Source: Elusimicrobiota bacterium (GTDB lineage Bacteria > Elusimicrobiota > Elusimicrobia > Elusimicrobiales > UBA9959). Taken from it: a stretch of DNA of 64,000 nucleotides. Position 1 is the first letter of the stretch. Each line of letters starts with the position of its first letter. Of this stretch, positions 24,727-45,945 are shown one piece after another. The stretch lies in assembly GCA_026388155.1 (NCBI GenBank), contig JAPLKI010000025.1, forward strand, positions 346,931 through 410,930. The letters are read 5' to 3'. Under the pieces are notes generated by a model. It did no database searches, was not told the DNA's origin, and saw nothing but the letters and a program-made list of their open reading frames with translations. The position numbers and the translations under genes are program-made.

Positions 24727-26019
24727 TCAGAAGTACAACGATAGTGCGGCTTCCACGAAAAACTGCGGATAATACAACTTCCGCACTACCATAGTCCGGT
24801 GGTTGCTGGGATAGTTGGCGCTGTTCGGATAAATCTCTATTGTATCGGTGTATTCCATTTTTTTGAAGTTATAATTTCCGAACACCGAAAACCCCAGCCG
24901 CTTCTGCAGTTTCCATTCAAGACCCAGCCGCGCCGTCGGAGTGGTATATCCATTGTTGTTATTATTATTATTGTTATTGTTATTGTTATTGTTATTGTTG
25001 TTGTTGTAGCCAATGCATACACTCCCGTTGCAGATCGGTGACGACCCCGACCCTTGCCCATCCTGTATTCTCATTTTCATCCCAAGGATGCCGCCGCCGA
25101 TTATCGCGCGGAACGGGCCGAAAAGATTGACTATTTTATTAAGCGTAAGCCGCATCATGGGCCCGTCGCCCTGGACGTTGGTCTCTGGCGGGAACTGGCC
25201 GCCGTAGTTGGAGCCGCTTGAAGCGACATTGAATACGGAACGCGGCGAAAACTCGGAGTGGAGAAAGGCGGTAATGTCAAACATCCAGGTTTTCCCCGGG
25301 CAGTAACGCACGCCCAAGCCCCCGGCCATAAATGAAGCGTTGGCATTTCTAGGAGTAACTGTCGCGTTGACGGGGCTGGGGGACACGTTCCAATAAAAGT
25401 TCTGCGAGGGAAGCTTCTCCATCTTCAGCGGACCGCCGCCCATAACCACATACAAGCCGACGGACTGGGATTGCTCGCCTTGCTCGCCTTCCGGCTCCTT
25501 CGCCTTCGCGCCGTAATGCGAAGCTTCCTCGTCCAGAAGCTGCGTCGGCACCTCGGTGACATCGGTCTCTATTATTTCGCCCTTTTCCGTGTTGATCAGC
25601 GAGGTGCTGATGTGGTAGAAGTCCCCCAGCTTCGTAACGATGCCGGACACCGCGAGCCGCGCGCCCGCCTGCTTGCCAAGCTGCGCCGCCGTCGCGATAT
25701 CCATGGCGGCCCCCGGCTTGCGGTCGGTCATGACCGTATTCACCTGGCTTCTGTCCAGCACCTTGAAAGCGCCGTCGGCCATAAAGCGGGTGGTAACCAG
25801 CTCCGTGCAGGCAAAATCAATGCGGCGGGACGAAAGTTTTTTGTCCGCCGTATACGGGAATACCGCCAGCGCAACGTTGGCGAGCTTGGCATCCGTCGCG
25901 GTTTTCACAAAGGTCTTCACCATCTTTTGCAGCCTTATGTCCATTTCCCCGGCCGCAGCTCCGGAAGCCGACAGCGCCAACACAACGACCGCGGCAAACA
26001 TAGCTGTAGTTCTTTTCAT
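24727..26019 (-). CDS. exported CsgG/FlgO-like and outer-membrane beta-barrel protein with poly-Asn run
   Basis: The 430-residue protein has a clear signal peptide (cleavage after Ala-Ala-Ala-Gly, about residue 24). Residues 40-170 resemble the CsgG/FlgO-type fold (NVALAVFPYTADKKLSSRRID, FKVLDRSQVN, GARLAVSGIVTKLGD, HISTSLINTEKGEI). Residues 185-430 alternate polar and hydrophobic strands and end in LSLYF with a terminal Phe, typical of outer-membrane barrels. An in-frame run of 18 asparagines, AAT and AAC codons at about 24953-25008, lies in a predicted loop. Function unknown; a surface-exposed protein with a variable loop is suggested. Confidence 0.65.
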   Translation of the reverse strand: MKRTTAMFAAVVVLALSASGAAAGEMDIRLQKMVKTFVKTATDAKLANVALAVFPYTADKKLSSRRIDFACTELVTTRFMADGAFKVLDRSQVNTVMTDRKPGAAMDIATAAQLGKQAGARLAVSGIVTKLGDFYHISTSLINTEKGEIIETDVTEVPTQLLDEEASHYGAKAKEPEGEQGEQSQSVGLYVVMGGGPLKMEKLPSQNFYWNVSPSPVNATVTPRNANASFMAGGLGVRYCPGKTWMFDITAFLHSEFSPRSVFNVASSGSNYGGQFPPETNVQGDGPMMRLTLNKIVNLFGPFRAIIGGGILGMKMRIQDGQGSGSSPICNGSVCIGYNNNNNNNNNNNNNNNNNNGYTTPTARLGLEWKLQKRLGFSVFGNYNFKKMEYTDTIEIYPNSANYPSNHRTMVVRKLYYPQFFVEAALSLYF

Positions 26020-31754: not shown

Positions 31755-32801
31755 TTACACTTTCACCAATTCCTTGTTCAGAAAATCAGAGTAGCATTTA
31801 GCCTTTCTGTTCTTCCAGGCGCCTTTGTGATAGCCGTAGCCGGCTATTAAAGGCATGGCCAGCGTGGCCTCGGCGTAAACCATCTGCTCGTGGGCAGTTT
31901 CCACCTTGCCCCAGGAGCTGGCCTCTTTAAGCGTGGAACCAGAAAGAGCGCCGTCGCGCACATCGGCCACGGTTACCTGCACCGCGTATTTATGCATGGG
32001 CGCTTCTTCGCCAAGGATATCGGCCGCCACCACGGTGTCCTGCGTGAAGTTCTTCGGCACGCCGCCGCCTATCATGAAAAGGCCGGTGTCTTTGGCCTCG
32101 ATTTTAACTCTGGTCAGCTCAAGAAAATCCCTGGCCGAGTCCATGGACATATGCTTGGCGGGGTTATTCCACTGGTGCTCCAGCATGCCGAAGCCGGCAG
32201 AACAGTCCGAGAAAGCGGGCACGAAAACAGGCACGCGTTTTTCATAAGCGGCCAGCACCACTGACTCATCGTTTTTACCGTGTTTTGCAAGATAGCGGCC
32301 CATCTCTTCGATGAACTCGCGTGAGGAATAAGGCCGGGGCTCGAGGGAATCCGCGATTTTGCGGGTGGTTTCGTCGCAGACGCGCAGTTCGTCCTCGTCT
32401 ATGAAAGTGTCGTAAATACGGTCTATGTGAAGGGCGCGCAGAACATTGTCGTCTACGCCGTAAGGGGAGCCCTTGTAATGGTTGTAGCCCAGCCCCTCAA
32501 AAAAGTCCTGGTCCACTATAACGGCTCCGGTGGAAACTATGGCGTCCACCATATTGTTTCTCACCATGTCCACCACGACTTTTTTGAGGCCGGCCGAGAA
32601 CAGGGAGCCGGCAAGCGTTAAAATAACGGAGCAGTTTTTGTCGGAGAGCATCATGCTGTAGATGCGGGCGGCCCTGGCAAGATCGCGGGCGGAGAAAGCC
32701 ATATCGCCCATCGCGTCGACCAAAGGCACCACATTGTGCTTTGTTATGTCAATGTGTTTTACGGTCTCCTTTAAGTAATCGGATTTTTTAAATTTTGGCA
32801 T
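31755..32801 (-). CDS. deoxyhypusine synthase family protein
   Basis: The 348-residue protein is homologous to eukaryotic and archaeal deoxyhypusine synthase. It keeps NAD-site features (VDAIVSTGAVIVDQDFFEGLG), the GGGVPKNFTQD loop and the ASSWGKV segment that contains the catalytic lysine in the eukaryotic enzyme. Bacteria lack eIF5A, so bacterial members are thought to make homospermidine-like or other polyamines. No other polyamine gene is nearby. It has its own promoter (32866-32895). Confidence 0.82.
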   Translation of the reverse strand: MPKFKKSDYLKETVKHIDITKHNVVPLVDAMGDMAFSARDLARAARIYSMMLSDKNCSVILTLAGSLFSAGLKKVVVDMVRNNMVDAIVSTGAVIVDQDFFEGLGYNHYKGSPYGVDDNVLRALHIDRIYDTFIDEDELRVCDETTRKIADSLEPRPYSSREFIEEMGRYLAKHGKNDESVVLAAYEKRVPVFVPAFSDCSAGFGMLEHQWNNPAKHMSMDSARDFLELTRVKIEAKDTGLFMIGGGVPKNFTQDTVVAADILGEEAPMHKYAVQVTVADVRDGALSGSTLKEASSWGKVETAHEQMVYAEATLAMPLIAGYGYHKGAWKNRKAKCYSDFLNKELVKV

Positions 32802-32895: not shown

Positions 32896-32925
32896 AAAAA
32901 GGCCCCCCGCTTTCGGCGGGGGGCC
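32894..32925 (-). terminator. terminator of the six-gene membrane-protein cluster
   Basis: On the minus strand GGCCCCCCGC and GCGGGGGGCC form a perfect 10-bp stem with a 5-base loop, followed by seven T residues (32894-32900). It lies 20 bases past the last gene of the cluster. Confidence 0.92.
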
Positions 32926-32945
32926 TGGCCGGTTTTCGCCGGAAA

Positions 32946-35900
32946 CTATTTACACTGGAGGCCGTTGAACTTGGGATACCTGGTCAACACGCCGAAGTTG
33001 AATTGCTGCTGCTCATGGGTATAACTCACTTTTCCGCTCACATCCACCACTTTTATACCCACGCTTATCCCTCCCTCTACCGAGTACGCGGTGACAGTAT
33101 CGCCGCCTCCGTGGCTCATCCTGACCTCCCCGTCTTCGAACACCCAAAACCCTTTGGCTTTGTTGTATACGCAGGTGACATCCACATCCATCTTGTAATG
33201 GCCGCGTTCCACAGCGCTCCATTGTTCCCTGGCATAATGCACCATTCCATTGGCTACCTGCGGGTTAGCATCGGCATTGCCTATCCAGATACGTTCCTTG
33301 TAGGGCAGGACATACGGCAGCTTTTGGCTCTGGAAAGGCGGCACCATGCCGTCGGGTGCCAGGTTCATGTCCTCGATATTAACAGTGGCCTGCTTACTCA
33401 CCCAGCCGGTGCTGCACCTGCTGGTGTTCCTTGGATCTTTGCCGAACATCTTCTTGACGATGTCATAAGTGCCGCCGATAAAGATCTCACCGCCTATCTG
33501 CCACGCAGGTTTGGGAGTTATCTTTCCGTCACAGGCCCAGTAAAGGATGGCCTTGCCGTCTTTGTCCCAGGCCCTGATCAGCGCCGGCCCATTGTACAGT
33601 ATAAGGCTGTTTATCACGCGCGGCGGAGCGGGTATTTTCGAGTCAGGCTTAATCGGCTGAACCGGAGGTTTAAGCGGCTGGATGAATGTGTTGTTGTGCG
33701 CGCCGGATATGTTGATCTGATTAGTATTGCCGTTGCTGGGCTTGTGAGTTATATCTTCATAAGCCTTGGCAAGCGTGGCGGAGGCTTTGTCGGCCCGCTG
33801 CTCCAGGTTCTTAAGGCTCGCGGTATATGTTTCAAGCAGCTTGGGGTCGGTCAGCTTGGGGTCGTTGATTTTCACCTGTATATCGGCCTTGCGCTTGTCT
33901 ATCTCGCCCATCTCTGTCCTATAGGCGGAAACCGCGCCCTGCGCCAGTTTGCTTTTCTTCATCCCTGAGAGCTCGCTCTCCCACGGTCTGGAGGTGTTCT
34001 TCACCCCGCTGATGTAACCATCCGTGTTGGTGTACGCTTCCATGGCCTGCTTGCGCTGAGTGTCGCTCACGCCGGAGACAGGAGGAGTGATCACCGGGGC
34101 GATCGGGTTAGGGTTCGTACCGCCCCCGTTCTCCGGGAAATAAGACGGATCCGCGCCGGCGCCCAGTATATCCCCTTTCGTGAGAGACATAATATCCGCA
34201 GTGTCCTTAAGACCAAGCGGTATATTCTTTTTAATATCCGCTATTTTTGACGTTATATCCACTTTTATTTCGTTGCTGCGCATATTGTTGGACACAAAAT
34301 TATCCGGCTTAACCAAATCGCCCTTGCCTCCGCCGGATTGCCAGGCGTTCCATGCCTTTATTTCGTCACCGGCGGCTTTGGAACTGTCAAACTTAAGCCC
34401 CGGCGGCCAAAGAGCATCCCAGTCCAGGGCGCGCACTCCATAGGCCGCCTGTTTCATGGAAGGACCTTTATCCGTGTTATTGGCGGCGGGAACTTCGGGC
34501 GCTTTAGTGGGAATGCCGGAAGTCGAGGCGGCCTTCTTTTTGGTCTCATCGGCGACAACGGGCGCGACGCTTATCGGCCTGCCGGTCATCTGTGTCAGTT
34601 TAGCCGGCCAGTCTTTTTTGCCGTCGTCCATGTTTATATTACTTGCCGCCGTATATACGTCGCCATGTTTGTTCTGAATGGCGGTTATTCCGTCGCCCAC
34701 ATTGGCAATTTGATCCGTGTAAGCGCTTAACCAGTCACGGTGAGAAGCATACAGGCTGGCTGCAGCGTTGATACCAAGGGAACCCTGCTTCTTCCATTTG
34801 GCGAGAGCGGCAACTATAGCTTTTCGTTGCTCACTGCCCGTGTCGGCAACCGCTTTGATCTTAGTATCACCAAGACCGCTTGCGGCGCTGGTTTTCATCC
34901 TGATCGTGTTATTATCCACGTCTTTCTGCAACACGGCGATCTGCCCGACGAATTTACCGTAGTTCTCTTGCGCTTTGCTGACCAGCGACTGCGCCTTGGC
35001 CACTTCGTCGGAATAACTACTTTTTGCTGCCTGGGCGTCGCTCTTGGCGGGATTCAGTTTTTGCTCTATTACCCGGCTGGCCTGGTCACGGAGGTTGTCA
35101 AAACCGCCTCTCACGCTTCTTGCGCTCTTTTCCACCGTGACAGCATCGGAAGAATTTTTCTCGGCAACTCCGGTCTGGTTTACCATATCCTTCAGTACCG
35201 TGTCATAATCCGTGAACGATTTAGCGGCGGTATCTGAAACCTGCTGCGGAGTTCCGCCGTTATCAGTTGTGCTACCCGGGCCTCCGGGCGGCACAGGAGC
35301 CACGGGTGCTGCGCCGCCTCCTTGGGGCGGCGGCGGAGTAACGCTTGAACCGTCATGCGGCACACCGGTGGTAGGTTTGGACCCTTCACCGCATATACAA
35401 TACTTTATCTGCCCGCCGCCGGTGGAATCCTTGCCGCCAGCCGCTGTCATTTTGAAGCTTGTCGCGCCGCCATATTGCTTTTGGCAGAGATCTCCAGGCC
35501 CAAGCACATTATATTTAGCTACTTGCGCGGCGCAGTCCCCGGTCGGACATGTGAACGGCTGCCAGCAGAACTGGGTCGGCGGATAATTCCCCAGCAGGCT
35601 GTTCATGTTGCTGGACATCATATCGCCCAGGGGTTTTATCAGGCCGTCAATGACCAGATTCTGAACCATGGCTTCTACTATCTCTTTTTTGATCCCATGC
35701 TTCAGGTATTCCTCCCAGGCAAGCTGGTTCTTCTGTCTCTCCTCGTTCGCCTTGCACTCCAGCGACTGACACTCGGTGCCGTGGCTATTCGAGTCTTTAA
35801 CGGTGGAATTTGAGGTGCCCTTGGTCGCGTCGCTGGTGCCGCCCCCGCCCATGCCTCCGGCCCCTTTTCCTATGTCGATCGCGTCCGCGGCCGCCCTGTC

Positions 35901-36704
35901 CAGCGAGTTCATGGCGCTTCCTCCGGTAAAGTTGCCGGCGGATTTATCAGCCTGCGAGCGCAGTTTTTCAAAAGCGCTCCTGCTTGAACTGTTCGGCGTA
36001 TTTGAGGCCACGCCCTTGTAACCGGCCATGGCAACCGGCCCGAGCATGGACCTGGACGTGGTCTTGCTTGAAGCGTTTTTAGCGTCCTGTATTATCTTAT
36101 CTCCGTTAAGCGCGCCCGACGTGCGGGAACTTTCGCCGCCGCTGAAGAAAGAACCGAAAGAGCGTAAAGCGCTCTGCAGCCTGGGAATAGGCGTGGGAGC
36201 TCCGGCTGATTTTGCCGCTTCAGAAAACCCCATCCGGCCCGCATCTTTCATTGCGTCGCGCATGCTGACATTGGGCGCGGGGGAAGTAATGGGCGGCGGT
36301 GTTGAAGACTGTGAGCCAAGTATGAGCGACATCGGGTCCCTTGAGCTTAAAGGCGTTATTACCTCTCCGGAACCGTCCGTTGAGCCCTGGCTGAGCCCGT
36401 TAATGCCGGGTTCGTAGAGCCCGGAAGCGGAGCCCTTCTCTCTTCCGCCGAAACCGGGGGTGAGCAAACCATCGGACGCGGGTTTGGACATCAGGTATTC
36501 CGCCACGGGAGCCATAACCAGAATGCTCAGGCCTATGCCGACAAAAGCCATGTCTTTTCTGGAAAGGTTCTTCAGCTTATCCATAATGCTGCCCGCGGTC
36601 CTTGAAAAGCCGGTAGTCTTGCCGAAAGAGGCGGTTTTTTTAAACGCCGAACCCATGATGGGCGGCAGACCGTCTTTTTTCTCGTCGTCATTATGTAAGT
36701 TCAT
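32946..36704 (-). CDS. six-gene cluster, protein 6: giant single-pass membrane protein
   Basis: At 1252 residues this is the largest protein of the cluster. It has a basic N-terminus, one transmembrane helix at about 50-67 (MAFVGIGLSILVMAPVAEYL), then a very long Ser/Gly/Ala-rich region with helical, probably coiled-coil parts (about 490-720, many QKLNPAKSDAQAAKSSYSD-like stretches; 870-980). Two cysteine-rich patches occur at about 315-320 and 385-440. The C-terminal 200 residues form a compact domain (ALIRAWDKDGKAILYWACDG; CVYNKAKGFWVFEDGEVRM). GGAGGAG precedes the ATG. The topology puts nearly everything in the periplasm. No known family recognised. Confidence 0.6.
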   Translation of the reverse strand: MNLHNDDEKKDGLPPIMGSAFKKTASFGKTTGFSRTAGSIMDKLKNLSRKDMAFVGIGLSILVMAPVAEYLMSKPASDGLLTPGFGGREKGSASGLYEPGINGLSQGSTDGSGEVITPLSSRDPMSLILGSQSSTPPPITSPAPNVSMRDAMKDAGRMGFSEAAKSAGAPTPIPRLQSALRSFGSFFSGGESSRTSGALNGDKIIQDAKNASSKTTSRSMLGPVAMAGYKGVASNTPNSSSRSAFEKLRSQADKSAGNFTGGSAMNSLDRAAADAIDIGKGAGGMGGGGTSDATKGTSNSTVKDSNSHGTECQSLECKANEERQKNQLAWEEYLKHGIKKEIVEAMVQNLVIDGLIKPLGDMMSSNMNSLLGNYPPTQFCWQPFTCPTGDCAAQVAKYNVLGPGDLCQKQYGGATSFKMTAAGGKDSTGGGQIKYCICGEGSKPTTGVPHDGSSVTPPPPQGGGAAPVAPVPPGGPGSTTDNGGTPQQVSDTAAKSFTDYDTVLKDMVNQTGVAEKNSSDAVTVEKSARSVRGGFDNLRDQASRVIEQKLNPAKSDAQAAKSSYSDEVAKAQSLVSKAQENYGKFVGQIAVLQKDVDNNTIRMKTSAASGLGDTKIKAVADTGSEQRKAIVAALAKWKKQGSLGINAAASLYASHRDWLSAYTDQIANVGDGITAIQNKHGDVYTAASNINMDDGKKDWPAKLTQMTGRPISVAPVVADETKKKAASTSGIPTKAPEVPAANNTDKGPSMKQAAYGVRALDWDALWPPGLKFDSSKAAGDEIKAWNAWQSGGGKGDLVKPDNFVSNNMRSNEIKVDITSKIADIKKNIPLGLKDTADIMSLTKGDILGAGADPSYFPENGGGTNPNPIAPVITPPVSGVSDTQRKQAMEAYTNTDGYISGVKNTSRPWESELSGMKKSKLAQGAVSAYRTEMGEIDKRKADIQVKINDPKLTDPKLLETYTASLKNLEQRADKASATLAKAYEDITHKPSNGNTNQINISGAHNNTFIQPLKPPVQPIKPDSKIPAPPRVINSLILYNGPALIRAWDKDGKAILYWACDGKITPKPAWQIGGEIFIGGTYDIVKKMFGKDPRNTSRCSTGWVSKQATVNIEDMNLAPDGMVPPFQSQKLPYVLPYKERIWIGNADANPQVANGMVHYAREQWSAVERGHYKMDVDVTCVYNKAKGFWVFEDGEVRMSHGGGDTVTAYSVEGGISVGIKVVDVSGKVSYTHEQQQFNFGVLTRYPKFNGLQCK

Positions 36705-36764
36705 AAACTCCTCCGATATCTCAAACCAGGATTTTTTCCGCTTCCGCGGCTGCTTAACCCCGCC

Positions 36765-36815
36765 GCCCGCTTATTTACCGAAGGCGAATCTTCGATTCGT
36801 AAACGTGTAGCGGGC
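36765..36815. repeat. hairpin with GCCCGCTTATTT repeat, copy 1
   Basis: GCCCGC (36765-36770) pairs with GCGGGC (36810-36815), with a nested CGAATC-TTC-GATTCG stem. The first 28 bases match 62534-62561 except for two changes. It lies in the leader of protein 6 of the membrane cluster. Confidence 0.5.
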
Positions 36816-36870
36816 AACTTCGTTCAATACCCGTCAACGACAAAACATAATAGCGGCAAAATACTCCGTT

Positions 36871-36920
36871 CCCAATACACACCCAGGCGCCGTACCGAAG
36901 CCTATGGCTTTCCGACGGCC
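36871..36920 (-). ncRNA. 50-nt conserved hairpin motif, copy C
   Basis: On the minus strand it reads GGCCGTCGGAAAGCC-ATA, then GGCTTCGGTACGGCGCCT and ends ATTGGG, gapless with copies A and B and with compensating changes in the inner stem (AAGCC/GGCTT here, GAGCC/GGCTC in B, GGCC/GGCC in A). It starts at or just after the predicted transcription start of the promoter at 36927-36955, about 170 nt upstream of the 1252-residue protein, which is a typical riboswitch-like position. Confidence 0.55.
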
Positions 36921-36926
36921 TGATAT

Positions 36927-36955
36927 AATCTAGCTAATATTACACCGAAAGCCAA
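36927..36955 (-). promoter_or_regulatory. possible promoter for protein 6 of the membrane cluster
   Basis: Minus-strand TTGGCT (36950-36955) and TAGATT (36927-36932) with 17 bp between. TATATC overlaps as an alternative -10. Confidence 0.4.
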
Positions 36956-36960
36956 GTGCC

Positions 36961-37245
36961 AATCGTCCTATAGCCGGCTAGGCACAAAGGCCTCTGTTCC
37001 CTCCAATAGAAAAAGCCCGGGCGCAAACCTGGAGATAGTTCCTTGCGAAAGAGACTCACACTCAAAAGACTGCCCGCTGAAACAGCGGACGCGCCTCGGT
37101 CGCGGACAGCGCCATAGGCCCTCGAAAGGCCGGCGGCACCGTCGAAAAAACTCTCTTTGCAAGGGACTACGCTCCTTATACCCCGTTGAACACCGCTTAC
37201 TGATCGTCTAACGGGGCAAACTAAGTTTGAAACCTCGGGCTCAGA
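36961..37245. other. highly structured non-coding region between cluster genes 5 and 6
   Basis: The region has no convincing gene but folds strongly. A 17-bp long-range stem with one bulge joins 37037-37054 to 37152-37168 (CCTTGCgAAAGAGA with TCTCTTTGCAAGG). Inside are CCGCTG-AAA-CAGCGG (37074-37088) and GGCC..GGCC (37117-37131). A separate CCCCGTT..AACGGGG stem spans 37181-37216. Either strand could be the RNA; tmRNA, RNase P and SRP signatures are absent. Confidence 0.4.
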
Positions 37246-37293
37246 GACAAAAAATACAACTCACTTTTAACGTCATACTCCGGCATGGAAACG

Positions 37294-38907
37294 TTATGGC
37301 GAAGATGCCGGCGCCGGATCAGTCGTCACCGGGTCAGTAGTGGCCAGGCCTGGGTCGGTCGTGGCCGGATCAGTCGTCACCGGGTCAGTAGATGGGTCAG
37401 GTGCTGGCGGCGGGGTGCCGACCGGGCTACCGACCGGTCCCGCGCCAGCGGCCATGCCGGCTAAGACCGCCGCTCCAACGGCCATGCCGCCTAAGATGAT
37501 AGTTGCTACGATGCCCACACCGGTCATCGCAGCGATCGCCGCCGCTGCCGCGAGGGAGCCACCAAGGACATAAATGCCTCCCAGCAGCAACTGACTCATA
37601 CCAATAAGCGCCATGCCGATCATCATAGCCTGTATCGCCATCATAAGAGCCTTAATGCACACCATTATACCGGCGATATACAGCATGATGCCTGCGATGA
37701 CGGTGGGCGGCCAGCTGCTCGCCATCATCGCCATGCCAGTCAATACCATGGCGGCGCCGGCAATAGACAGCATTACAGACTGCATTATAAGCGACAACGC
37801 CTGCTGGCACATTCCCAGTATGGGACCAAAATTAGTCGGGGGAGTGGCGGGGGGTACCCCTGGGGTTACGACCGTAGGCGGCGCTGACGGATCGGGGACC
37901 ACAAAGGCTGCCGGGGGGACCGGAACAGCAGAAGCCGTGTCGTAGTTGGTTTGTGCTATCTTTTCGTTTACATCGTTGCCGTCATAGGTGGACCCCTCGT
38001 ATGCCGCCTGGTATTCGGGTGCGGCGGTTTTTGATCTATAAGCGGAGTCGGTCATTGAAAAAGTAGCCGCAAGCTGGAAAAGGGGCGCTTTTGAGGTGTT
38101 AACGACATTGATCTTGTTGGTTTTGGTCTTATAACCCACATTTTTCCAGGAAAAGCCGGTGGCCTTGCCCATTTTCATGCCTTTTACTTTCTGCGGGCTG
38201 CCCGGCACCGGTATTCTGCTGCCGGCCTGAGATAAGGCGTAATTATATACGCCCTGGCTCTTGGAGATAACGCTGCCTCCTGCAGTGAGCATTCTGCTGA
38301 ACGGGCTTGAACCATAGCTGCCGTCGCCATGACGCTCGGCAAGATTCGAGCCCATCAGGTCGCCGTACACTCCACCGGCATCAGCGCCGCCGCCCGCCTT
38401 CAGACCATCAAGGCTCACAGTGCTCCCGTCCTCGCCGCGCGCTTTCTCTTCGGCATTCACCACGCCCTTAACCGGCCCCGCGGATTTTTCGTCTTTCATA
38501 ACAGGCATGCCGAACAGGTCAAGGTCTCCCCCGCCGCGAATCATGGCCATGGACGAAGGACTGCCCGCCGGCGGCAGGGTTGAATTCAGGCTGCTTAAAA
38601 ACTTATTCCAAAAAGAGTCCCGTGAACTGTCGGCCGTGGCCTTATCCAGAGCCGCCTTGAACCCGGCGGTGGAGTACCTGGGATTTATGGCTGAAAGGAT
38701 GCTGCCCAAACCCATCGATTTAAGAAAAGCGGCCACAGGCGGCAGTTCCAGCATCCGTTCTATGGTTTCGGTAGAGGCCACAAAAGGCAAAGAAGTGGCG
38801 GCCATCAACAGGGCGATGGTCACATACTTGGCTCTGCCCCTGAAAAGGAGAAGCAGAGTGGCTAAAAGGGATCTTTTTTTATATTTCTCTGTAAATTTGC
38901 CGCCCAT
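37294..38907 (-). CDS. six-gene cluster, protein 5: polytopic Gly/Ala-rich membrane protein
   Basis: The ATG at 38907 with GGGAGG upstream gives 537 residues. There is one transmembrane helix near 28-47, a soluble low-complexity middle part and, from about residue 375 to 490, a cluster of small-residue helices (SVMLSIAGAAMVLTGMAMM; LLLGGIYVLGGSLAAAAAI). The G-IY-GG-A-AA signature in the last helices matches proteins 3 and 4. The tail is a Thr-Asp-Pro repeat (TTDP units). The central EYQAAYEGSTYDG resembles DKAWEGSTAEG of protein 4. Paralogy with its neighbours is clear; function unknown. Confidence 0.65.
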   Translation of the reverse strand: MGGKFTEKYKKRSLLATLLLLFRGRAKYVTIALLMAATSLPFVASTETIERMLELPPVAAFLKSMGLGSILSAINPRYSTAGFKAALDKATADSSRDSFWNKFLSSLNSTLPPAGSPSSMAMIRGGGDLDLFGMPVMKDEKSAGPVKGVVNAEEKARGEDGSTVSLDGLKAGGGADAGGVYGDLMGSNLAERHGDGSYGSSPFSRMLTAGGSVISKSQGVYNYALSQAGSRIPVPGSPQKVKGMKMGKATGFSWKNVGYKTKTNKINVVNTSKAPLFQLAATFSMTDSAYRSKTAAPEYQAAYEGSTYDGNDVNEKIAQTNYDTASAVPVPPAAFVVPDPSAPPTVVTPGVPPATPPTNFGPILGMCQQALSLIMQSVMLSIAGAAMVLTGMAMMASSWPPTVIAGIMLYIAGIMVCIKALMMAIQAMMIGMALIGMSQLLLGGIYVLGGSLAAAAAIAAMTGVGIVATIILGGMAVGAAVLAGMAAGAGPVGSPVGTPPPAPDPSTDPVTTDPATTDPGLATTDPVTTDPAPASSP

Positions 38908-38919
38908 AAAAAACCTCCC

Positions 38920-38984
38920 GTCCCGCCCTTTTGGAACGCATGGCATCGCCTATAAGCGGCCACTCCGTTCCAAAAGGGCGGGAC
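38920..38984. repeat. 19-bp perfect inverted repeat GTCCCGCCCTTTTGGAACG
   Basis: Left arm 38920-38938 and right arm 38966-38984 are exact reverse complements, separated by 27 bases. It sits directly upstream of the Shine-Dalgarno of cluster gene 5, so its mRNA hairpin would abut the ribosome site. The inner end CCAAAAGGGCGGGAC recurs at 51165-51180. Confidence 0.8.
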
Positions 38985-39022
38985 GACAAACCGCGCTGCT
39001 CCGCGGATAAAACAGACCGCCT

Positions 39023-40495
39023 TTACTTACCGATCGAACCGCCGGCCATAGCGCCGAGCAGGCCGATTATTCCCGCTATGGCTGACCACATAAGCGCGCT
39101 TACGCCGAGCGCTTCGCCGCTAAAGGCCGCAATGCCGGCCATAACAGCAACACCTCCGCCGATAATATATATACCGCCCATCATAGCCTGCCCTTTGCTG
39201 GTCATGATCATGACGCCCAAAGCTATAGCCGCCACACCGAGGATTATGGCTATAACGTTCAGTATATCGCCGATTGTTATCAAGGCAGAACCCGAACCGA
39301 AAGCTGCCTCAGCAGCTTCTCCCGCCGCTACCAAAGCTCCGCCAATGGCGGACAAGACAGCGGAAAGCAGTATCAGCATCATGGCCATATTACACATGCT
39401 GGTCAAAGCCTTGTCCGCATCCGTTTTTCCTGTCGTGTCAGGGACAACCGGTTCATCACCTGTTCCCGCAGTGCTGCTTCCTCCGCTGCTGCTGGTATTG
39501 TCAAGCGAAGGAGAAGTAACCACGCCGGCCCCGCCGTCGCCGGCGCCAACGCCTGCGCCGCCGGTGGTTCCTTCCGCGGTGGAACCTTCCCAGGCCTTAT
39601 CCTGGGTTGAGCGGGCGGAATCGACATTTGAGCCGCTGTAAGATTTCTGCGTGGCCTTTATACCCTTGGCCTGATTATACGACCCCGGGCCGGACTTGGC
39701 GCCTTTGCCGCTCTTCGCGCTTGAAAACACGGGCCTTGAACTGCCCTTCATGGCCAGCACTTTCTTCCTTTGGTCAAACTTAGGCATACCCTGAAAGCCG
39801 GAGCCTACGCTGCTAAGGCCGACCTGCGGACCCACCGCCCCCTTGCCGAACTTATTGCCGAACCCGCCCATGCCGCTGAACTTGCTTTCCCCTCCGCCAA
39901 GGGAACTGGTAAGAGAGCCCATCGAAGCCCCCTGCAGTTTACCCATCATATCCTGCTGCATATTATTGCCGGGCGCAGGCTGGTTCTGGCTCTGGTCCGC
40001 CGAAGCGCCTTTAGCGGCATCCGCTTCCGCCTTGGCGGCGGCTTCCTCTTCGGCCTTTCTGGCGGCTTCCTCTTCGGAGGTTATCCCGGAGTTCTTATTG
40101 GCGTCCTTGAACATATCCAAAGAAGAGCCCTGGTTCCGGGCCTGGCTCCTCAGGATGGACGGCACATAGTTGTCGGGCGTTTTACCGCTGTTAAAAGCGG
40201 AGTTCTGCACGGGAGCCGGGCCATTATTGGCCAGGTAAACCCCCGTTCCCACGGCCACTATGGCTGCGGTAATAAGCAACCCGGCCTTGCCCGCGAACAG
40301 GGCGCCTATGCCGGAGGACGAGCCGAAGCCGCCCAACTTGCCGAAGTTGGCCGCGCCCCGAAACGCGCCGCCGGCTTCTTCAATCCCGCCCATGGAACTT
40401 CTGGCGCCGAAGCCCAAGCGGGCCCTGAGCCAGGGGAGAAGACCTTTTTTTTCTTTCTTCTCCTTAAATTTTATTTCCGGCAGATTTTCGTTCAT
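39023..40495 (-). CDS. six-gene cluster, protein 4: polytopic Gly/Ala-rich membrane protein
   Basis: The 490-residue protein has a charged N-terminus (KFKEKKEKKGLLPWL), one helix at about 68-90, the motif SLDMFKDANKNSG near 125 (shared with protein 3), an Ala/Glu segment (EEAARKAEEEAAAKAEA), a Gly/Ser-rich middle part and, after about residue 370, four or five hydrophobic helices ending GGSIGK. AMMGGIYIIGGGVAVMAGIAA matches the same position in proteins 3 and 5. The likely topology is N-terminus in, central part periplasmic, C-terminal bundle in the membrane. Confidence 0.65.
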   Translation of the reverse strand: MNENLPEIKFKEKKEKKGLLPWLRARLGFGARSSMGGIEEAGGAFRGAANFGKLGGFGSSSGIGALFAGKAGLLITAAIVAVGTGVYLANNGPAPVQNSAFNSGKTPDNYVPSILRSQARNQGSSLDMFKDANKNSGITSEEEAARKAEEEAAAKAEADAAKGASADQSQNQPAPGNNMQQDMMGKLQGASMGSLTSSLGGGESKFSGMGGFGNKFGKGAVGPQVGLSSVGSGFQGMPKFDQRKKVLAMKGSSRPVFSSAKSGKGAKSGPGSYNQAKGIKATQKSYSGSNVDSARSTQDKAWEGSTAEGTTGGAGVGAGDGGAGVVTSPSLDNTSSSGGSSTAGTGDEPVVPDTTGKTDADKALTSMCNMAMMLILLSAVLSAIGGALVAAGEAAEAAFGSGSALITIGDILNVIAIILGVAAIALGVMIMTSKGQAMMGGIYIIGGGVAVMAGIAAFSGEALGVSALMWSAIAGIIGLLGAMAGGSIGK

Positions 40496-40546
40496 AATTA
40501 CCTCCCATTAAAATCAACATATTTCACCGCTCCAGAGTTTTGCAAA

Positions 40547-42049
40547 TCATGGCGCCACCGCCGCATTAGCAGACCCGCCGATACTCGAGAGATTAATATT
40601 ATTCGTTGCCGCAAAGTTCGTAAACTCAGCGTTGCCGTTTCCTGTTAAGGTTGAAATATCCTGCGCAGCAGTACCACCCTCCCCTATGCCGGAGTAAGCC
40701 GCGTAGGCCTGATACATAAGGATGGCGCCGACCCCCATGTAGATCATACCCGTCATTTTCTGGTCGAGGCCCCTGAGTTTCATGCCGGCTATCATAACGA
40801 AACCGGCGGCCACGCAGGCGGCTATGCAGCAGTACATCGCATATGATTTCATAGACGCGTATGTAGCCATATCCCCGGCCACTTTAGCCATGCCGACGGG
40901 GCCTGCGGCGGAGTCAACGGCAGCCTGGTGCAAAGCCGCGTTGGCTTTCTTGGCGAAAATGCTGGTCGCGAAAATTAAAGCGGCGGCCAGCAGCATCCCG
41001 TACATCGCCCTGTCGGTCCATTTCTTCACCTCTGAATCGTCATTTACCGGATCCGACACTTTAGGCGGGGTGGAATTGTTGCTGTTAAGGCTGGGATCGT
41101 TCCCCTTTAAGCCGGCCCCGGCTGAAACACCGGCCCCGCCAAGGCCCGCGCCCGTACCGGCGGCGCCCGCATCCCCTGTGCCGGTATTCCCGCCATCAAA
41201 AGGTTGTGAAGCCTCAGTTCTCGACCCGCTCGCGTTGGTCGAGTAGGCAGCTTTGGAGCCCATCTTGCCGGCGTATTTGGCCTGTCCAAAGGCGCCTTTT
41301 TTGTTAAAATTCGGCACCGTGTATTTTGGGGAATTGCCGACCCTTGAGGCCAGGGAGCCGTTCATGGCTGAGCTTTTGCCCGTGCCGGCCGGCGGCCTGT
41401 AAACGGAAGCGAACTGATTTCCTATGCCGCTTGAAAGCCCGCCGCCGTCCTGCATCCTGGGGATAGTGGTACCTGAAGCGCCGCCACCGCCACCGCCGCC
41501 CTTTGAACCGAAGCCCGGGGCTGCCTGCAATTTTGGCGCTCCGGCTCCCGCAGCGTCAGCGCCTGAAGCGCCAGCCGCATAATTATTATCCACGGCCGGA
41601 GCCTCGGCTGAAGCATCAGCTGAAGCGTCCTTGCCCGATTTATCTCCCGCCCCGTCGGGCGAGCCGCCCAGGCCGTCTTTTTTGGCCTGCTCCCTGAACA
41701 TATCCAGGCTGGATATGTCACCCGACGCCGAATTCCTGTTAGCCCTTTCCATGCCGGCTTTTTGCGACTCTTCCTCTAAATAGCTGTTCTGGAACAACTG
41801 AGGCGTGTAAACGGATTTGGAGGACGAACCGACAAAGTTATAGATCACACCCACTCCGGCGGCTATGGTGGCCCCGCCAAGCACCACGCCCAATATACCG
41901 GCCTTGGTGGCGAACAATCCGCCTATGCCTCCGGCGGAACCAAGCCCCGAAGAAGCGCCGCCCATAGCCGATGAGCCGCCCCTGAAAAGCCCGGAAAGGG
42001 CCGACCAGAACCCGCCTTTCTTTTCTTCTTTGTCATTTTGAGAGTTCAT
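40547..42049 (-). CDS. six-gene cluster, protein 3: polytopic Gly/Ala-rich membrane protein
   Basis: AAAGGAG before the ATG at 42049 sets the start and gives 500 residues. One transmembrane helix lies at about 50-75 (GILGVVLGGATIAAGVGVIY), followed by SLDMFREQAKKDG near 120, a glycine run (eight Gly) near 190, DPSLNSNNSTPPKVSDP near 335 (nearly the same in protein 2) and C-terminal helices about 350-450 (MTGMIYMGVGAILMYQAYAAY). It ends in a Ser/Asn/Ala-rich tail. The shared motifs show common ancestry with proteins 2, 4 and 5. Confidence 0.65.
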   Translation of the reverse strand: MNSQNDKEEKKGGFWSALSGLFRGGSSAMGGASSGLGSAGGIGGLFATKAGILGVVLGGATIAAGVGVIYNFVGSSSKSVYTPQLFQNSYLEEESQKAGMERANRNSASGDISSLDMFREQAKKDGLGGSPDGAGDKSGKDASADASAEAPAVDNNYAAGASGADAAGAGAPKLQAAPGFGSKGGGGGGGASGTTIPRMQDGGGLSSGIGNQFASVYRPPAGTGKSSAMNGSLASRVGNSPKYTVPNFNKKGAFGQAKYAGKMGSKAAYSTNASGSRTEASQPFDGGNTGTGDAGAAGTGAGLGGAGVSAGAGLKGNDPSLNSNNSTPPKVSDPVNDDSEVKKWTDRAMYGMLLAAALIFATSIFAKKANAALHQAAVDSAAGPVGMAKVAGDMATYASMKSYAMYCCIAACVAAGFVMIAGMKLRGLDQKMTGMIYMGVGAILMYQAYAAYSGIGEGGTAAQDISTLTGNGNAEFTNFAATNNINLSSIGGSANAAVAP

Positions 42050-42104
42050 AAATTTCTCCTTTAAATCCGGCGCACATATCGCTTGCAACTCACGGCGTCA
42101 AGCT

Positions 42105-43121
42105 TCAGCAGGGTTTCCCGGTTGTCTGATTGTACTGCCCCGGGGTACAGCCTACAGGCTTCTGCTGGTAGTCGGGATTAATGGCCATGGCCATCGACTG
42201 GCCTATAGCGCCGAACACCGACCCGAGCGTAGCCTGTATGATCATCTGCAGTATCATCTTCTTCATTTCTTCGTCGGTATTATCTTCTTTCGGCTTCGAC
42301 ACTTCGGGAGGCTTGCTCTTATTGGAATTCAGACTGGGGTCGCTCTTTTTCAGGTCCTGAGCGGCCTGGCCCAAAGCAAGGCCCGAAGAAGCCGCGCCGT
42401 TCTCCAACCCCGTGTTAAGATCCGAAGTATCGGCCTTGGCGCTTTTTTCAAAAGCCGTGGTGGCGCCACCCTTGGCCGCATCCATGTTGTTGGTTTTGGC
42501 GGCCAGCTGGCTTTTATCCGCGGCATTGCCCAGCATGGCCAGCAGCACGCCTTTGTTAGCGGGGGGGGCTTTTACAGGTTTCAGATCGCCGGCCGGGGCG
42601 ATGTCCGCTTTGGCGCTTCCATTGCCGAAGAATTTATTATGCGCGCCGCCCGTGGACATGGAATTTGCATTGCCGGCCGTGATCGAGGCCTGCGGAGTAA
42701 GCTTCGCGCCGCCCGCGCCAGGCCTGGGAGCCGGCGCCGCGGCTGAGGCTGAAAATTTGCCGGACAAATCAGGCGCCTGTGCTTCGGCTGAAGCGCTTTT
42801 ATCCGCGGCCTGCGCGTCTTCCGTGTCGGAACCGGACTGGAAAAGCGAAGACGCCATACTTTCGCCGGAAGTCGCAGGATTATCCGTCATTTCTCCGCTT
42901 AAAGGCGAGCCGGGGGCCCCGCCCTCCGAAGGGATACCCTCGCCCAAAGCGCCTATATCGGATACCCTGGATTTAAAAGGATTGCCGGAAGCGGCGGAAG
43001 AGTCAAGAGAAGAATTACTCATGAGCGGCAACGAAATCCACGCGATAAGGATGAGAATCGCGATAATGCCGCCTACAAGGTACTGAGCGGACTTGGATTT
43101 TTTGTTTTGTATCCGTATCAT
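42105..43121 (-). CDS. six-gene cluster, protein 2: bitopic Ser/Ala-rich membrane protein
   Basis: The ATG at 43121 follows GAGAGGGG and gives 338 residues; a longer upstream frame lacks a ribosome site. One transmembrane helix lies at about 13-32 (VGGIIAILILIAWISLPLM). The middle is Ala/Ser/Gly-rich. DPSLNSNKSKPPEVSKP at about 265 is almost the same as in protein 3, and is followed by a hydrophobic segment (MILQMIIQATLGSVFGAIG). The end CTPGQYNQTTGKPC has two cysteines, as if for a disulfide. A strong promoter is at 43288-43316. Confidence 0.6.
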   Translation of the reverse strand: MIRIQNKKSKSAQYLVGGIIAILILIAWISLPLMSNSSLDSSAASGNPFKSRVSDIGALGEGIPSEGGAPGSPLSGEMTDNPATSGESMASSLFQSGSDTEDAQAADKSASAEAQAPDLSGKFSASAAAPAPRPGAGGAKLTPQASITAGNANSMSTGGAHNKFFGNGSAKADIAPAGDLKPVKAPPANKGVLLAMLGNAADKSQLAAKTNNMDAAKGGATTAFEKSAKADTSDLNTGLENGAASSGLALGQAAQDLKKSDPSLNSNKSKPPEVSKPKEDNTDEEMKKMILQMIIQATLGSVFGAIGQSMAMAINPDYQQKPVGCTPGQYNQTTGKPC

Positions 43122-43287
43122 AACCCCTCTCTTTTTCCAGCCACCCGGCAACGACCGCCGGTGACACAGGAGGAAACCGCATACTTTATTCCACTCAACC
43201 GGTTCAAACCCAGAACGCACAAACAACTATAAACTTTCCTTGACACAATTACTGGAATGTTCAAGGCAAAGTTCCGACCGCAAATAT

Positions 43288-43316
43288 GTTATAGCAGAAA
43301 ACACTTGACTTGTCAA
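43288..43316 (-). promoter_or_regulatory. strong sigma-70 promoter of cluster gene 2
   Basis: Minus-strand TTGACA (43311-43316) and TATAAC (43288-43293) are 17 bp apart with an extended -10 TGC. GGGCCC is directly upstream of the -35, as in the promoter at 44718-44746. Confidence 0.75.
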
Positions 43317-43404
43317 GGGCCCGGCCTACCACCCACACGCCGCATATACGGGGGCTTTTCGGCGTTTTTTTGTCAGACTCTGCCAAAACGATCATCCCTT
43401 CCGG

Positions 43405-44613
43405 CTACTTACAGGGGTTTTTACATTCCCACAGTGTATCGGTATACTTGCTCACGCTACCATTGACTGTATCCTCTCCGGATACTGTGACCTTCCAGCC
43501 ATCATTGGTCCTCACAAGAGGATACGGCGGCGGATTATCTTTGAATGAGCCCGCACCACCGGGGTACTCACATGGCGGCTCGCAGCAAGCAGTCGGCTTA
43601 TTCGCCATCTGGGTCGCCTGTGCGGGAGGCGCGGAATTTGCGTCCCCTCCTTCAGGGGCCTGGGCGCCCAGCTTATTGGCCATGGGGCTGAACATGGAAT
43701 TCGCCAGACCGGATGTGGGATTTGCAGCGTCTTTGGCGGCCTCTTTCATCTTATTAAGGGCGGGATCGTTAGCCTCAGCCGATTTGTCCCTTGTAGGGGG
43801 ACTCACTTCCCCGGGTTTAAGAGATTTTGCCCCGGTCATTTTAAGGCTGTCAATTTCACCGCTTTTTATAGTGTCAAGCTTGGCCAGGCCGCTTTTTCCG
43901 TAAGCAAGCCCCGACGCCGAACCGGCATTCCCCACCCCGAAGCTTTGTCCCCATTTGGTTTTGGCTTCCATGGCGGAAGAACTTCTAAGGGCGTCTCCAA
44001 GAAAAGCCCGTGAATTTCGCAAAGACGAAAGAGTGCCGCTTTTCGCGCCCTGACCCTTGGCGCCGAATGCGCCCGCCTTTGAAATACTCACATTGCCGGA
44101 GTCGTCTTCGGAACCGAACCTGGAAAGCCCGGATGAAGATTTAGTCTCCGCGCCGCCTACGGAGCCAAGGCCGGAACCTTTACCCGCCATTCTGGGGACG
44201 GAAGCGCCGGAAGCCAGCGAGGCCGAAGGATAACGATTCCCCGGAGAATTCGGCGTCGGCCCGCTTTTATCCATCCAGTCCGAAATCTCCGACGCCAAAT
44301 CGGACACGGAAGAGGCAAGCTCCCTAGCCAGGCTTCTTTTCTGAGCGTCCTGCGACAACTCGGGCTCATCCGAGACAAAACCGAGGTTCTTCATGAAAGC
44401 GGTCACTCCGGCCCTGGCCTCGGCGCCATAGGAAAAGTTCTGCGTCTTATTGTCTTTTAGATCTTCCGCGCCCTGGATCACGAAAAAAAGAAAAATCCCG
44501 CCGCCGCAAAGAAGGAAGGCCAGCAGGGATACTATAAGCGCCTTTTTTCTGCCTCCGTCGTGCCGGCGGTCTCTGGCGCTGTCATCCGGCCTGCCCTTGT
44601 CGTTTTCAGCCAT
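43405..44613 (-). CDS. six-gene cluster, protein 1: bitopic membrane protein with Cys-rich C-terminus
   Basis: The first gene of the cluster encodes 402 residues. A charged N-terminus (DDSARDRRHDGGRKK) precedes one transmembrane helix at about 25-46 (ALIVSLLAFLLCGGGIFLFF). The central part is Gly/Ser/Ala-rich like the other members (SKAGAFGAKGQGAKSG; NDPALNKMKEA, a weaker form of the DPSLN motif). The C-terminal 60 residues hold five cysteines (CCEPPC, WECKNPC) around a small domain (GWKVTVSGEDTVNGSV). The C-terminal part is predicted periplasmic, likely disulfide-stabilised. Confidence 0.6.
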   Translation of the reverse strand: MAENDKGRPDDSARDRRHDGGRKKALIVSLLAFLLCGGGIFLFFVIQGAEDLKDNKTQNFSYGAEARAGVTAFMKNLGFVSDEPELSQDAQKRSLARELASSVSDLASEISDWMDKSGPTPNSPGNRYPSASLASGASVPRMAGKGSGLGSVGGAETKSSSGLSRFGSEDDSGNVSISKAGAFGAKGQGAKSGTLSSLRNSRAFLGDALRSSSAMEAKTKWGQSFGVGNAGSASGLAYGKSGLAKLDTIKSGEIDSLKMTGAKSLKPGEVSPPTRDKSAEANDPALNKMKEAAKDAANPTSGLANSMFSPMANKLGAQAPEGGDANSAPPAQATQMANKPTACCEPPCEYPGGAGSFKDNPPPYPLVRTNDGWKVTVSGEDTVNGSVSKYTDTLWECKNPCK

Positions 44614-44769: not shown

Positions 44770-45945
44770 CTAACTATCCTTTAATCCTTTATGTCTGAGC
44801 GCTATGGCGGCGGCCAGATCGTCTATTTTTTTCAAGTCATCTTCTTTCGGCAGGCCTTTTACCATTACTGGCGGAAGTATTTCAACCTTTAAATTCGTCA
44901 GCATACCCGCCAGCGTTTCAACCGCTTTGCCCCCCCAGCCGTAAGAACCGATAACGGAAATAAACTTTACTTTAGGCCTGAGCGCGTTCGCCAGATAGGC
45001 CCCGTAAACCGCTTTGGGATGGGGTCCCGCAAGGACCGTGGGCGTTCCTATAACAACGGTGGCGGCGTCCACCAAAGCCATGGCAACCCTCCCCTCGTCA
45101 AACTGCTCCAGGTTCAGTTTTTCCACGCTCACCCCCGCATCTTCAAGGGCGCTTACCAGACGGTTTACCAGAACATAAGTGCTTCCGTGCATTGACACAT
45201 AGGCCACAAGCGCCTTGTTTTTCGGCTCCCCGAAGGCCCAGTCTTTGTAAATGTCCAGCGCGAATTTGACATTCTTATGCACCGGACCGTGGCTGGGCGC
45301 TATGAAATTAATTTCGTATTTTGAAAGTTTTTCCAGATGCGCCTTAATGTTTGAGCGGAACGGCATCATTATCTCGGCGTAATAGCGCTTCATGGGCACA
45401 TAAACCGTATGTTCCCGCGAGAATAATTCGCCCGAGGCTAAATGCGAACCGAAAAAATCGCAAGAAAACAGAATCTTGTCTTCGCGCAGGTAAGTGCCCA
45501 TGGTCTCGGGCCAATGCACCCAGGGCAGATAAACGAATTCGAGCGTTTTGCCGCCGAGCGAAAGGGTCTCCCCGTCTTTTACCTCCATGAATTTGTCGGC
45601 GGGAATATGCAGATGGCTCATCAGAAGCTCTTTGCACTTGGGGTTTGTCACCACTTTGGCTGAAGGATATTTCTCAAGCACAAAGGGGATGGAACCCGAA
45701 TGGTCCTGCTCGGCATGATGCGCGACTATGTAGTCAAGTTTTTTAATGCCCTTCAGATAGGCAAGAAGAGCCTCTTTTTTCTCGGGGTCGGCGCAGTCAA
45801 GCAGGGCTGTTTTTTCGGAGCCCTTTACCAGATAAGCGTTATAACTGGTACCGTCAGGCAGGGGAATAAGGGAATCAAAAAGATGCCTGTTGAAATGGTT
45901 GACGCGCAGAGAATACACACCTTCTGTTATTTGAACCGGGTTCAT
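44770..45945 (-). CDS. flavodiiron protein (FprA/ROO family)
   Basis: The 391-residue protein has an N-terminal metallo-beta-lactamase domain with the diiron ligands HAEQDH (near residue 79), WVHWPE, CDFFGSH and APSHGPV, and a C-terminal flavodoxin domain (VAYVSMHGSTYVLVNRL, IGSYGWGGKAV) that binds FMN. Such enzymes reduce O2 to water or NO to N2O in the cytoplasm of anaerobes and protect against oxidative or nitrosative stress. The electron donor (rubredoxin) is not seen nearby. AGGAG precedes the ATG. Confidence 0.93.
   Translation of the reverse strand: MNPVQITEGVYSLRVNHFNRHLFDSLIPLPDGTSYNAYLVKGSEKTALLDCADPEKKEALLAYLKGIKKLDYIVAHHAEQDHSGSIPFVLEKYPSAKVVTNPKCKELLMSHLHIPADKFMEVKDGETLSLGGKTLEFVYLPWVHWPETMGTYLREDKILFSCDFFGSHLASGELFSREHTVYVPMKRYYAEIMMPFRSNIKAHLEKLSKYEINFIAPSHGPVHKNVKFALDIYKDWAFGEPKNKALVAYVSMHGSTYVLVNRLVSALEDAGVSVEKLNLEQFDEGRVAMALVDAATVVIGTPTVLAGPHPKAVYGAYLANALRPKVKFISVIGSYGWGGKAVETLAGMLTNLKVEILPPVMVKGLPKEDDLKKIDDLAAAIALRHKGLKDS

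What the first reader, a model, noticed from the sequence alone, without database searches (positions are those of the whole stretch)
32946..44613. Six-gene cluster of paralogous, membrane-anchored Gly/Ala/Ser-rich proteins: a candidate undescribed envelope system
All six proteins start with a charged N-terminus and one helix, then long low-complexity periplasmic parts. Proteins 3, 4 and 5 end in a helix bundle with the shared pattern G-IY--GG----A-AA; proteins 3 and 4 share SLDMF; proteins 2 and 3 share DPSLNSN plus a Pro-rich segment; protein 6 is a 1252-residue giant. There is no ATPase, channel or pilin gene of a known secretion system. The shared design and a single terminator suggest parts of one complex.
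Basis: partly seen in the sequence, partly recalled or inferred. Interest (0 to 1): 0.78.

Follow-up and report, generated by a model that had tools for sequence, protein, structure and literature searches.

The report
Detached accessory module of Tad pilus
Six neighbouring genes of unknown family in a bacterium of the phylum Elusimicrobiota look like a displaced part of the gene set for a Tad pilus, a hair-like surface machine, and probably make inner-membrane parts of that machine.

Summary
The six genes are real and travel together: of 28 related loci, 19 carry all six in order, 6 are cut by contig ends, 3 lack a detectable gene 1. No Pfam, NCBIfam or PHROG match exceeds a cut-off. p3 and p4 are clear paralogues and p2 a distant one; p5 and p6 are not shown to be. 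The helix bundle of p5 is peculiar to this genome.

It is not a stand-alone envelope system. Outside the window's family, 16 of 20 genomes with a p2 match have it 1.6-8.3 kb from a TadG-like minor-pilin gene; in G026 Tad core and p genes form one run. In the window's genome the Tad locus (secretin, RcpC, TadA-type ATPase, TadB/C, Flp-like pilins) is on another contig and carries p0, a p1 relative. Within the window's family the linkage is lost (1 of 46).

Most likely p1-p6 are inner-membrane-anchored accessory parts of an Elusimicrobiota-type Tad pilus, with constant N-terminal and variable C-terminal halves. The Tad link is well supported; the role is inferred.

The parts
43405..44613 (-). 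p1 (402 aa): charged tail, one TM helix (about 27-45), Gly/Ser-rich part, variable Cys-containing C-terminal domain; relative of p0 in the Tad locus on contig C6
42105..43121 (-). p2 (338 aa from the conserved ATG): one TM helix, conserved middle part, hydrophobic or amphipathic C-terminal helix; distant paralogue of p3
40547..42049 (-). p3 (500 aa): TM helix, SLDMF and DPSLNSN motifs, C-terminal hydrophobic helices; paralogue of p4
39023..40495 (-). p4 (490 aa): predicted helix 64-90, mostly low-confidence middle part with SLDMF, confident C-terminal helix bundle about 359-457
37294..38907 (-). p5 (537 aa): TM helix; in this genome the C-terminal part resembles p4's bundle, in relatives a Cys-rich segment plus helices
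37294..37902 (-). p5 C-terminal part (about residues 336-537), the p4-like replacement
32946..36704 (-). p6 (1252 aa): TM helix about 54-72; residues 1-330 strongly conserved, 331-1252 highly variable (predicted long helices, then a beta-rich end)
32900..32926 (-). intrinsic terminator after p6 (11-pair stem, T-run)

Best explanation
p1-p6 are accessory components of an Elusimicrobiota-type Tad (type IVc) pilus machine. In the window's family they have been moved away from the main tad locus. Each is held in the inner membrane by an N-terminal helix with a charged cytoplasmic tail. A conserved, mostly unfolded periplasmic half with short motifs docks onto the machine next to the TadG/TadE-like minor pilins and the RcpC ring; the C-terminal domains, which vary between species, customise what it contacts. 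p6, with long helices, would be the main spacer in the periplasm. Shown: conservation, order, linkage to tad genes in other families, co-occurrence with Tad genes, relationship of p1 to a protein in the tad locus, constant/variable design. Inferred: orientation, physical contact with the pilus base, scaffold role.
For: Linkage: of 20 genomes outside family f1 with a p2 match, 16 have p2 within 1.6-8.3 kb of the TadG-like gene. Of 44 with both p6 and TadG-like places listed, 15 have them on one contig, 11-28 kb apart. In the listed part, RcpC itself (Pfam) lies on the same contig as p2 in G233, G217, G203, G196 and G193, about 19-25 kb away. One same-strand run from Tad core to a p6-like gene in G026. 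Neighbours also in f9 (L101), f14 (L152), f15 (L089, L092, L096) and f2 (L091, L150). Co-occurrence, counted from the listings: 100 of 108 p6-positive genomes have the TadG-like gene and 103 of 108 have RcpC. Own Tad locus on contig C6: ParA-like/T2SSE fusion (1.8e-65), two T2SSF proteins, secretin 2.3e-41, RcpC 6.6e-14, TadE 3.2e-10, Flp-like hits below cut-off. p0, next to the minor pilins there, matches the p1 profile: 49.1 bits in G013, 33.8 in G010, 24.2 in G004, 21.9 in the own genome, 18.2 in G023; nine reversed copies give no p1 match. Constant/variable split, median identity: p6 62% versus 18%, p5 50 versus 16, p1 41 versus 19. The own secretin is only 258 aa, with the secretin domain at 96-258, so something else may have to span the periplasm (inference).
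Against: In the window's own family p2 and the TadG-like gene share a contig in only 1 of 46 genomes, 44 kb apart; 3 further f1 genomes with both were left out of that count. Outside f1, 29 of 44 genomes have p6 and the TadG-like gene on different contigs; in fragmented assemblies this says little, but it is not support. 171 of 274 RcpC-positive genomes have no p6 match, so the module is dispensable for Tad as such, or too diverged to find; in G033 the TadG/TadE-like pair has no p gene beside it (L149). Eight p6-positive genomes lack the TadG-like gene, two of them over 90% complete (G126, G227), and G126 lacks RcpC too. The own p0 score (21.9 bits) is little above the best decoy of another profile (19.3 bits). 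No contact data; the models give no fold match. The Fisher P values ignore shared ancestry.
Confidence: 0.62

Rival explanations
1. The p proteins are cargo or display proteins of the pilus: the variable C-terminal domains of p1, p5 and p6, and the hydrophobic bundles of p3-p5, are presented to or inserted into other cells, comparable to the changeable tips of the Myxococcus Kil pilus.
For: Constant N-terminal halves and strongly diverged C-terminal parts; cysteines in the variable parts of p5 and, in many rows, of p1 and p6; neighbouring TadG/TadE-like minor pilins, whose relatives in Myxococcus are modelled as tips with variable ends (PMC12075869, abstract and sections 8 and 16).
Against: The window's p1-p6 have no class III prepilin motif directly before the helix and no family match over a cut-off to an adhesin or toxin. 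A signal for release from the inner membrane was not searched for.
Confidence: 0.2
2. An independent inner-membrane/periplasm scaffold that merely neighbours tad genes in some lineages.
For: Unlinked in family f1, where it is nearly universal (p2 in 52 of 59 genomes at E 0.001, p6 in 56 of 59 at E 1e-5), and flanked there by housekeeping genes.
Against: Linkage in four other families (f2, f9, f14, f15) and a p1 relative inside the f1 tad locus; 103 of 108 p6-positive genomes have RcpC.
Confidence: 0.15
3. A diverged conjugation or type IV secretion apparatus.
For: Several membrane-anchored proteins plus small hydrophobic bundles recall such systems (recalled, not a test).
Against: No Pfam or NCBIfam match to such a family, no match in the plasmid collection for p3, conserved chromosomal neighbourhood.
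Confidence: 0.02

Closest known systems
Tad (tight adherence, type IVc) pilus systems
   Same: The p cluster is linked to TadG/TadE-like minor pilins in other families, and in G026 to a Tad core; the window's genome has a Tad locus with ATPase, platform, secretin, RcpC and Flp-like pilins.
   Different: p1-p6 match no Pfam or NCBIfam model over a cut-off, and the Tad parts named in the passages read (CpaB, CpaC, CpaD, CpaE, CpaI, CpaO; PMC13170226) were not described there with such a design.
Kil system tips of Myxococcus (KilL/M/N minor pilins; PMC12075869)
   Same: Constant base plus variable extremity as a design principle; TadE/G-like minor pilins nearby.
   Different: p1-p6 are not pilins by motif; the paper reports tip1-4 genes as restricted to Myxococcota genomes.
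TolA
   Same: NCBIfam TolA scores 19.3 bits on p4 residues 141-196, an Ala/Glu-rich stretch.
   Different: Far below the cut-off of 59.45; composition is the likely cause.

Membership tests
Tad pilus system (p1-p6 as parts of it) | Core genes (TadA-type ATPase, two T2SSF proteins, secretin, RcpC, Flp pilin) in the same genome | tested here: met
   contig C6; the Flp-like hits are below Pfam's cut-off (2.3e-4)
Tad pilus system (p1-p6 as parts of it) | Genes lie within or beside the tad locus | tested here: inconclusive
   met for p2 in 16 of 20 genomes of other families; not met in the window's genome or in 45 of 46 family f1 genomes
Tad pilus system (p1-p6 as parts of it) | Prepilin peptidase TadV present | not tested
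   no search was made for it
Tad/type IV minor pilin | Class III prepilin signal directly before the N-terminal helix | tested here: not met
   (window proteins, simple G/A-x4-E pattern); the only match is in p5's tail, about 20 residues before the helix
Tad/type IV minor pilin | Pilin fold | tested here: inconclusive
   models of p4 and of the p6 tail have low confidence outside helices and no fold match at E 0.001; the other four were not modelled
Type IV secretion / conjugation | Match to a VirB/Tra family | tested here: not met
   p3 also without a plasmid match
TolA | Score over the NCBIfam cut-off | tested here: not met
   19.3 of 59.45 bits

The most novel reading that the evidence does not exclude
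Elusimicrobiota have turned a Tad pilus into a larger envelope-spanning contact machine: six membrane-anchored proteins with constant bases and species-variable ends, among them a giant helical p6, form a periplasmic rod or delivery platform that hands variable domains to the pilus tip or to neighbouring cells.
Probability: 0.15. Interest if true: 0.82.

Novelty: new variant of a known kind. Interest (0 to 1): 0.58.

Why it matters
It gives a context, and so a testable function, to a block of some 3,500 residues of conserved envelope protein without a family, found in 56 of 59 genomes of one Elusimicrobiota family (p6) and recognisable in several others. If right, Tad pili can carry a large lineage-specific set of inner-membrane parts, and these are the genes to examine when asking how a Tad pilus with a short secretin crosses the periplasm.

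Tried and rejected
Pfam, NCBIfam and PHROG scans of p1-p6: nothing over a cut-off (weak hits only, best TolA on p4 at 5.5e-4). Solved-structure sequence searches with the p4, p6-tail and TadE-like (A8) profiles: nothing convincing (best for the p6 tail is dynactin, 0.015, likely coiled coil). AlphaFold of p4: only about 359-457 confident, 281 of 490 residues below pLDDT 50. AlphaFold of the p6 tail: mean pLDDT 62.8, long helices and a beta-rich end. Fold searches: no match at E 0.001 or better (best 1.9e-3, an uncharacterised phage protein).

hhalign between the six profiles looked positive for several pairs, but block-shuffled profiles reached 132-186 bits in four pairs, so I discarded it and used hmmsearch with reversed and shuffled copies. 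There one reversed sequence still reached 8.7e-6 (19.3 bits), so the links p1-p2 (best 3e-6, 21.9 bits) and p1-p6 are not claimed. By the same yardstick the own p0 alone (21.9 bits) would be weak; the p0-p1 link rests on G013 and G010, and the own p0 shares SIPKFLRDQD with G013's.

Considered and rejected: conjugation system; TolA; a recent copy of the own p4 end in p5 (the best match of the p5 end is p4 of another species, 45% over 106 aa, and there is no significant DNA match to the own p4). The FtsH-like neighbour is not a constant partner: of nine genomes searched, one (G005) has the tad-type copy; f1 loci L145-L148 also carry one.

[quoted passage not shown] PMC8809381, passages (a Tad-like region in Elusimicrobium minutum and Endomicrobium); PMC13170226, passages; PMC12075869, outline with abstract and sections 8 and 16. 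In none of the listed titles and abstract starts did I see this gene set: 25 of 153 listed; 3 of 3; 15 of 9,067; 3 of 3; 2 of 2; 8 of 8; one search was ill-formed and found nothing. The library holds open-licence papers only. Sizes of known secretins, and the idea that a short one needs bridging, are recalled.
Full report
What is there. The window lies in a genome (G000, contig C25) whose named relatives are Elusimicrobiota. On the minus strand, between a flavodiiron-type protein (44770-45945) and a deoxyhypusine-synthase-like protein (31755-32801), six genes run in one direction: p1 43405-44613, p2 42105-43121, p3 40547-42049, p4 39023-40495, p5 37294-38907, p6 32946-36704. A strong terminator follows p6. 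The 589-base gap before p6 holds only short ORFs on the minus strand, none over 64 aa. All six have a charged tail before a predicted helix near the N-terminus.

Conservation. I compared 28 loci from relatives. Nineteen hold p1 to p6 in the same order and strand (in L043 p4 and p5 are each broken into two frames). Six are cut by contig ends (L033, L036, L044, L045, L055, L057). Three have p2-p6 without a detectable p1 (L050, L051, L054). The flanks are partly kept: the flavoprotein in 17, the outer-membrane-like protein in 19, dnaX in 17 and the deoxyhypusine-synthase-like gene in 10 of the 28, several of which end before those genes. In the phylum p2 was found in 72 of 340 genomes (E 0.001) and p6 in 108 of 340 (E 1e-5); in the window's family f1, in 52 and 56 of 59. 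Two loci carry an extra gene between p4 and p5 (L032, L048).

Paralogy. Profile searches with reversed and shuffled decoys show p3 and p4 to be clear paralogues and p2 a more distant one. p1 is at most a weak relative of p2 and p6, and the p6 profile matches no other member. p5 in general matches none; the exception is the window's own p5, whose second half matches the p4 profile at 7.9e-23. In relatives that part holds a Cys-rich segment followed by helices: it is seen in 22 of 23 relatives, and for the 23rd (L053) the tail was not printed but its row lists eight cysteines. The best match of the p5 end is p4 of another species, with no significant DNA match to the own p4, so it is not a recent copy.

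Constant and variable halves. Median identity to the window is 62% for p6 residues 1-330 but 18% for 331-1252; p5 50 and 16%; p1 41 and 19%; p3 59 and 34%; p4 58 and 38%; p2 50 and 44%. AlphaFold gives a confident helix bundle at about p4 359-457 and little else. The p6 tail is predicted as long helices, one of 77 residues, with a beta-rich end, at moderate confidence. Neither has a fold match at E 0.001 or better.

The link to Tad. In distant families the p genes follow a protein with a TadG-like N-terminal signal (A7, named by motif; no Pfam match), a TadE-like protein (A8; Pfam TadE 0.001 and 0.11, below cut-off) and in several loci an FtsH paralogue (A9). Of 20 genomes outside f1 with a p2 match, 16 have p2 on the same contig as the A7 gene, 1.6-8.3 kb away; in three (G189, G205, G211) the listed A7 match is on another contig and G181 has none. 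Of the 52 genomes outside f1 with a p6 match, 3 have no A7 match and 5 have one whose place was not listed; of the other 44, 15 have both on one contig, 11-28 kb apart, and 29 on different contigs. RcpC by Pfam lies on the same contig as p2, about 19-25 kb away, in five genomes of the listed part (G233, G217, G203, G196, G193).

One run. In G026 one contig carries, on one strand, genes that resemble the Tad proteins of contig C6 (Flp, TadE, RcpC, secretin, TadZ-TadA, TadB/C; not scanned one by one), regulators, A7, A8, a p0-like gene, p2, a p3-like gene, a p5-like gene, a 1,235-residue p6-like gene and a TPR protein. Only p2 is significant there by profile (2e-5); the others are placed by order and layout. 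In G032 a similar series follows A8, of which only the p5-like gene is recognised (8e-5). In G033 no p gene stands beside the A7/A8 pair.

The window's own genome. Its Tad locus is on contig C6: two T2SSF proteins, a ParA-like/T2SSE fusion, secretin, RcpC, TadE and Flp-like proteins, regulators, A7, A8 and p0. p0 scores 21.9 bits (1.1e-7) on the p1 profile; p0 of G013 and G010 score 49.1 and 33.8 bits; reversed copies give no p1 match. So a relative of the first gene of the cluster still sits in the tad locus. RcpC was found in 274 of 340 genomes, among them 103 of the 108 with p6; A7 in 201 of 340, among them 100 of the 108 (counted). The Fisher values ignore phylogeny and are not used as proof. 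G000 has no tad-type FtsH paralogue at the threshold used and six RcpC matches, so perhaps more than one Tad system.

How it probably works. Tad pili are assembled by an ATPase and platform in the inner membrane, an RcpC/CpaB ring and a secretin. In this genome the secretin is 258 aa with its domain at 96-258, leaving little periplasmic part. p1-p6 would then be inner-membrane-anchored parts whose conserved, mostly unfolded halves bind the machine and whose variable ends meet lineage-specific partners. This is inference. The main rival is that the variable ends are displayed or delivered by the pilus, as proposed for the changeable tips of the Kil pilus (PMC12075869, sections 8 and 16). p1-p6 are not pilins by motif, which speaks for a basal role.

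Known and new. That Elusimicrobiota have Tad systems is in print (PMC6668835 and PMC8809381, passages). In the listed titles and abstract starts I saw no mention of this accessory set; the lists were partial. I call it a new variant of a known kind. Outside Elusimicrobiota the search was thin: one pattern scan with p3, which returned 18 loci, 16 with Elusimicrobi- in the title and two named only 'bacterium', and no plasmid match for p3.

Noticed in passing
window 37294-37902: The C-terminal part of p5 resembles p4 of relatives instead of the Cys-rich p5 ending of the other species: a domain replacement in this lineage.
   Followed up: yes
L145, L146, L147, L148, L089, L092, L096, L101: A second FtsH-type AAA+ protease (HEAGH motif in the A9 alignment) lies directly after the TadE-like gene, or close to it, in several Tad loci; no such copy found in G000.
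   Followed up: partly
L032:13270-14880 and L048:9315-11080: A gene of about 455-475 aa whose start looks like a B12-binding radical-SAM protein (recalled resemblance) is inserted between p4 and p5.
   Followed up: no
L038:1657-3309, L040:3214-4878 and similar ORFs in L042 and L047: Another Gly/Ala/Ser-rich protein of about 550 aa with an N-terminal hydrophobic stretch lies upstream of murC; its similarity to p3 may be composition only.
   Followed up: no
window 31755-32801: Deoxyhypusine-synthase-like gene (PF01916, 5.6e-95) directly downstream, in a bacterium; found at the same place in 10 of 28 related loci.
   Followed up: no
G000: Six RcpC matches in the window's genome, so there may be more than one Tad system.
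   Followed up: no
L056:15430-16896: A second p1-like ORF on the opposite strand between p6 and the outer-membrane-like gene.
   Followed up: no
window 24727-26019: Weak CsgG-like match (4.4e-4, 20 bits against a Pfam cut-off of 20.8).
   Followed up: no
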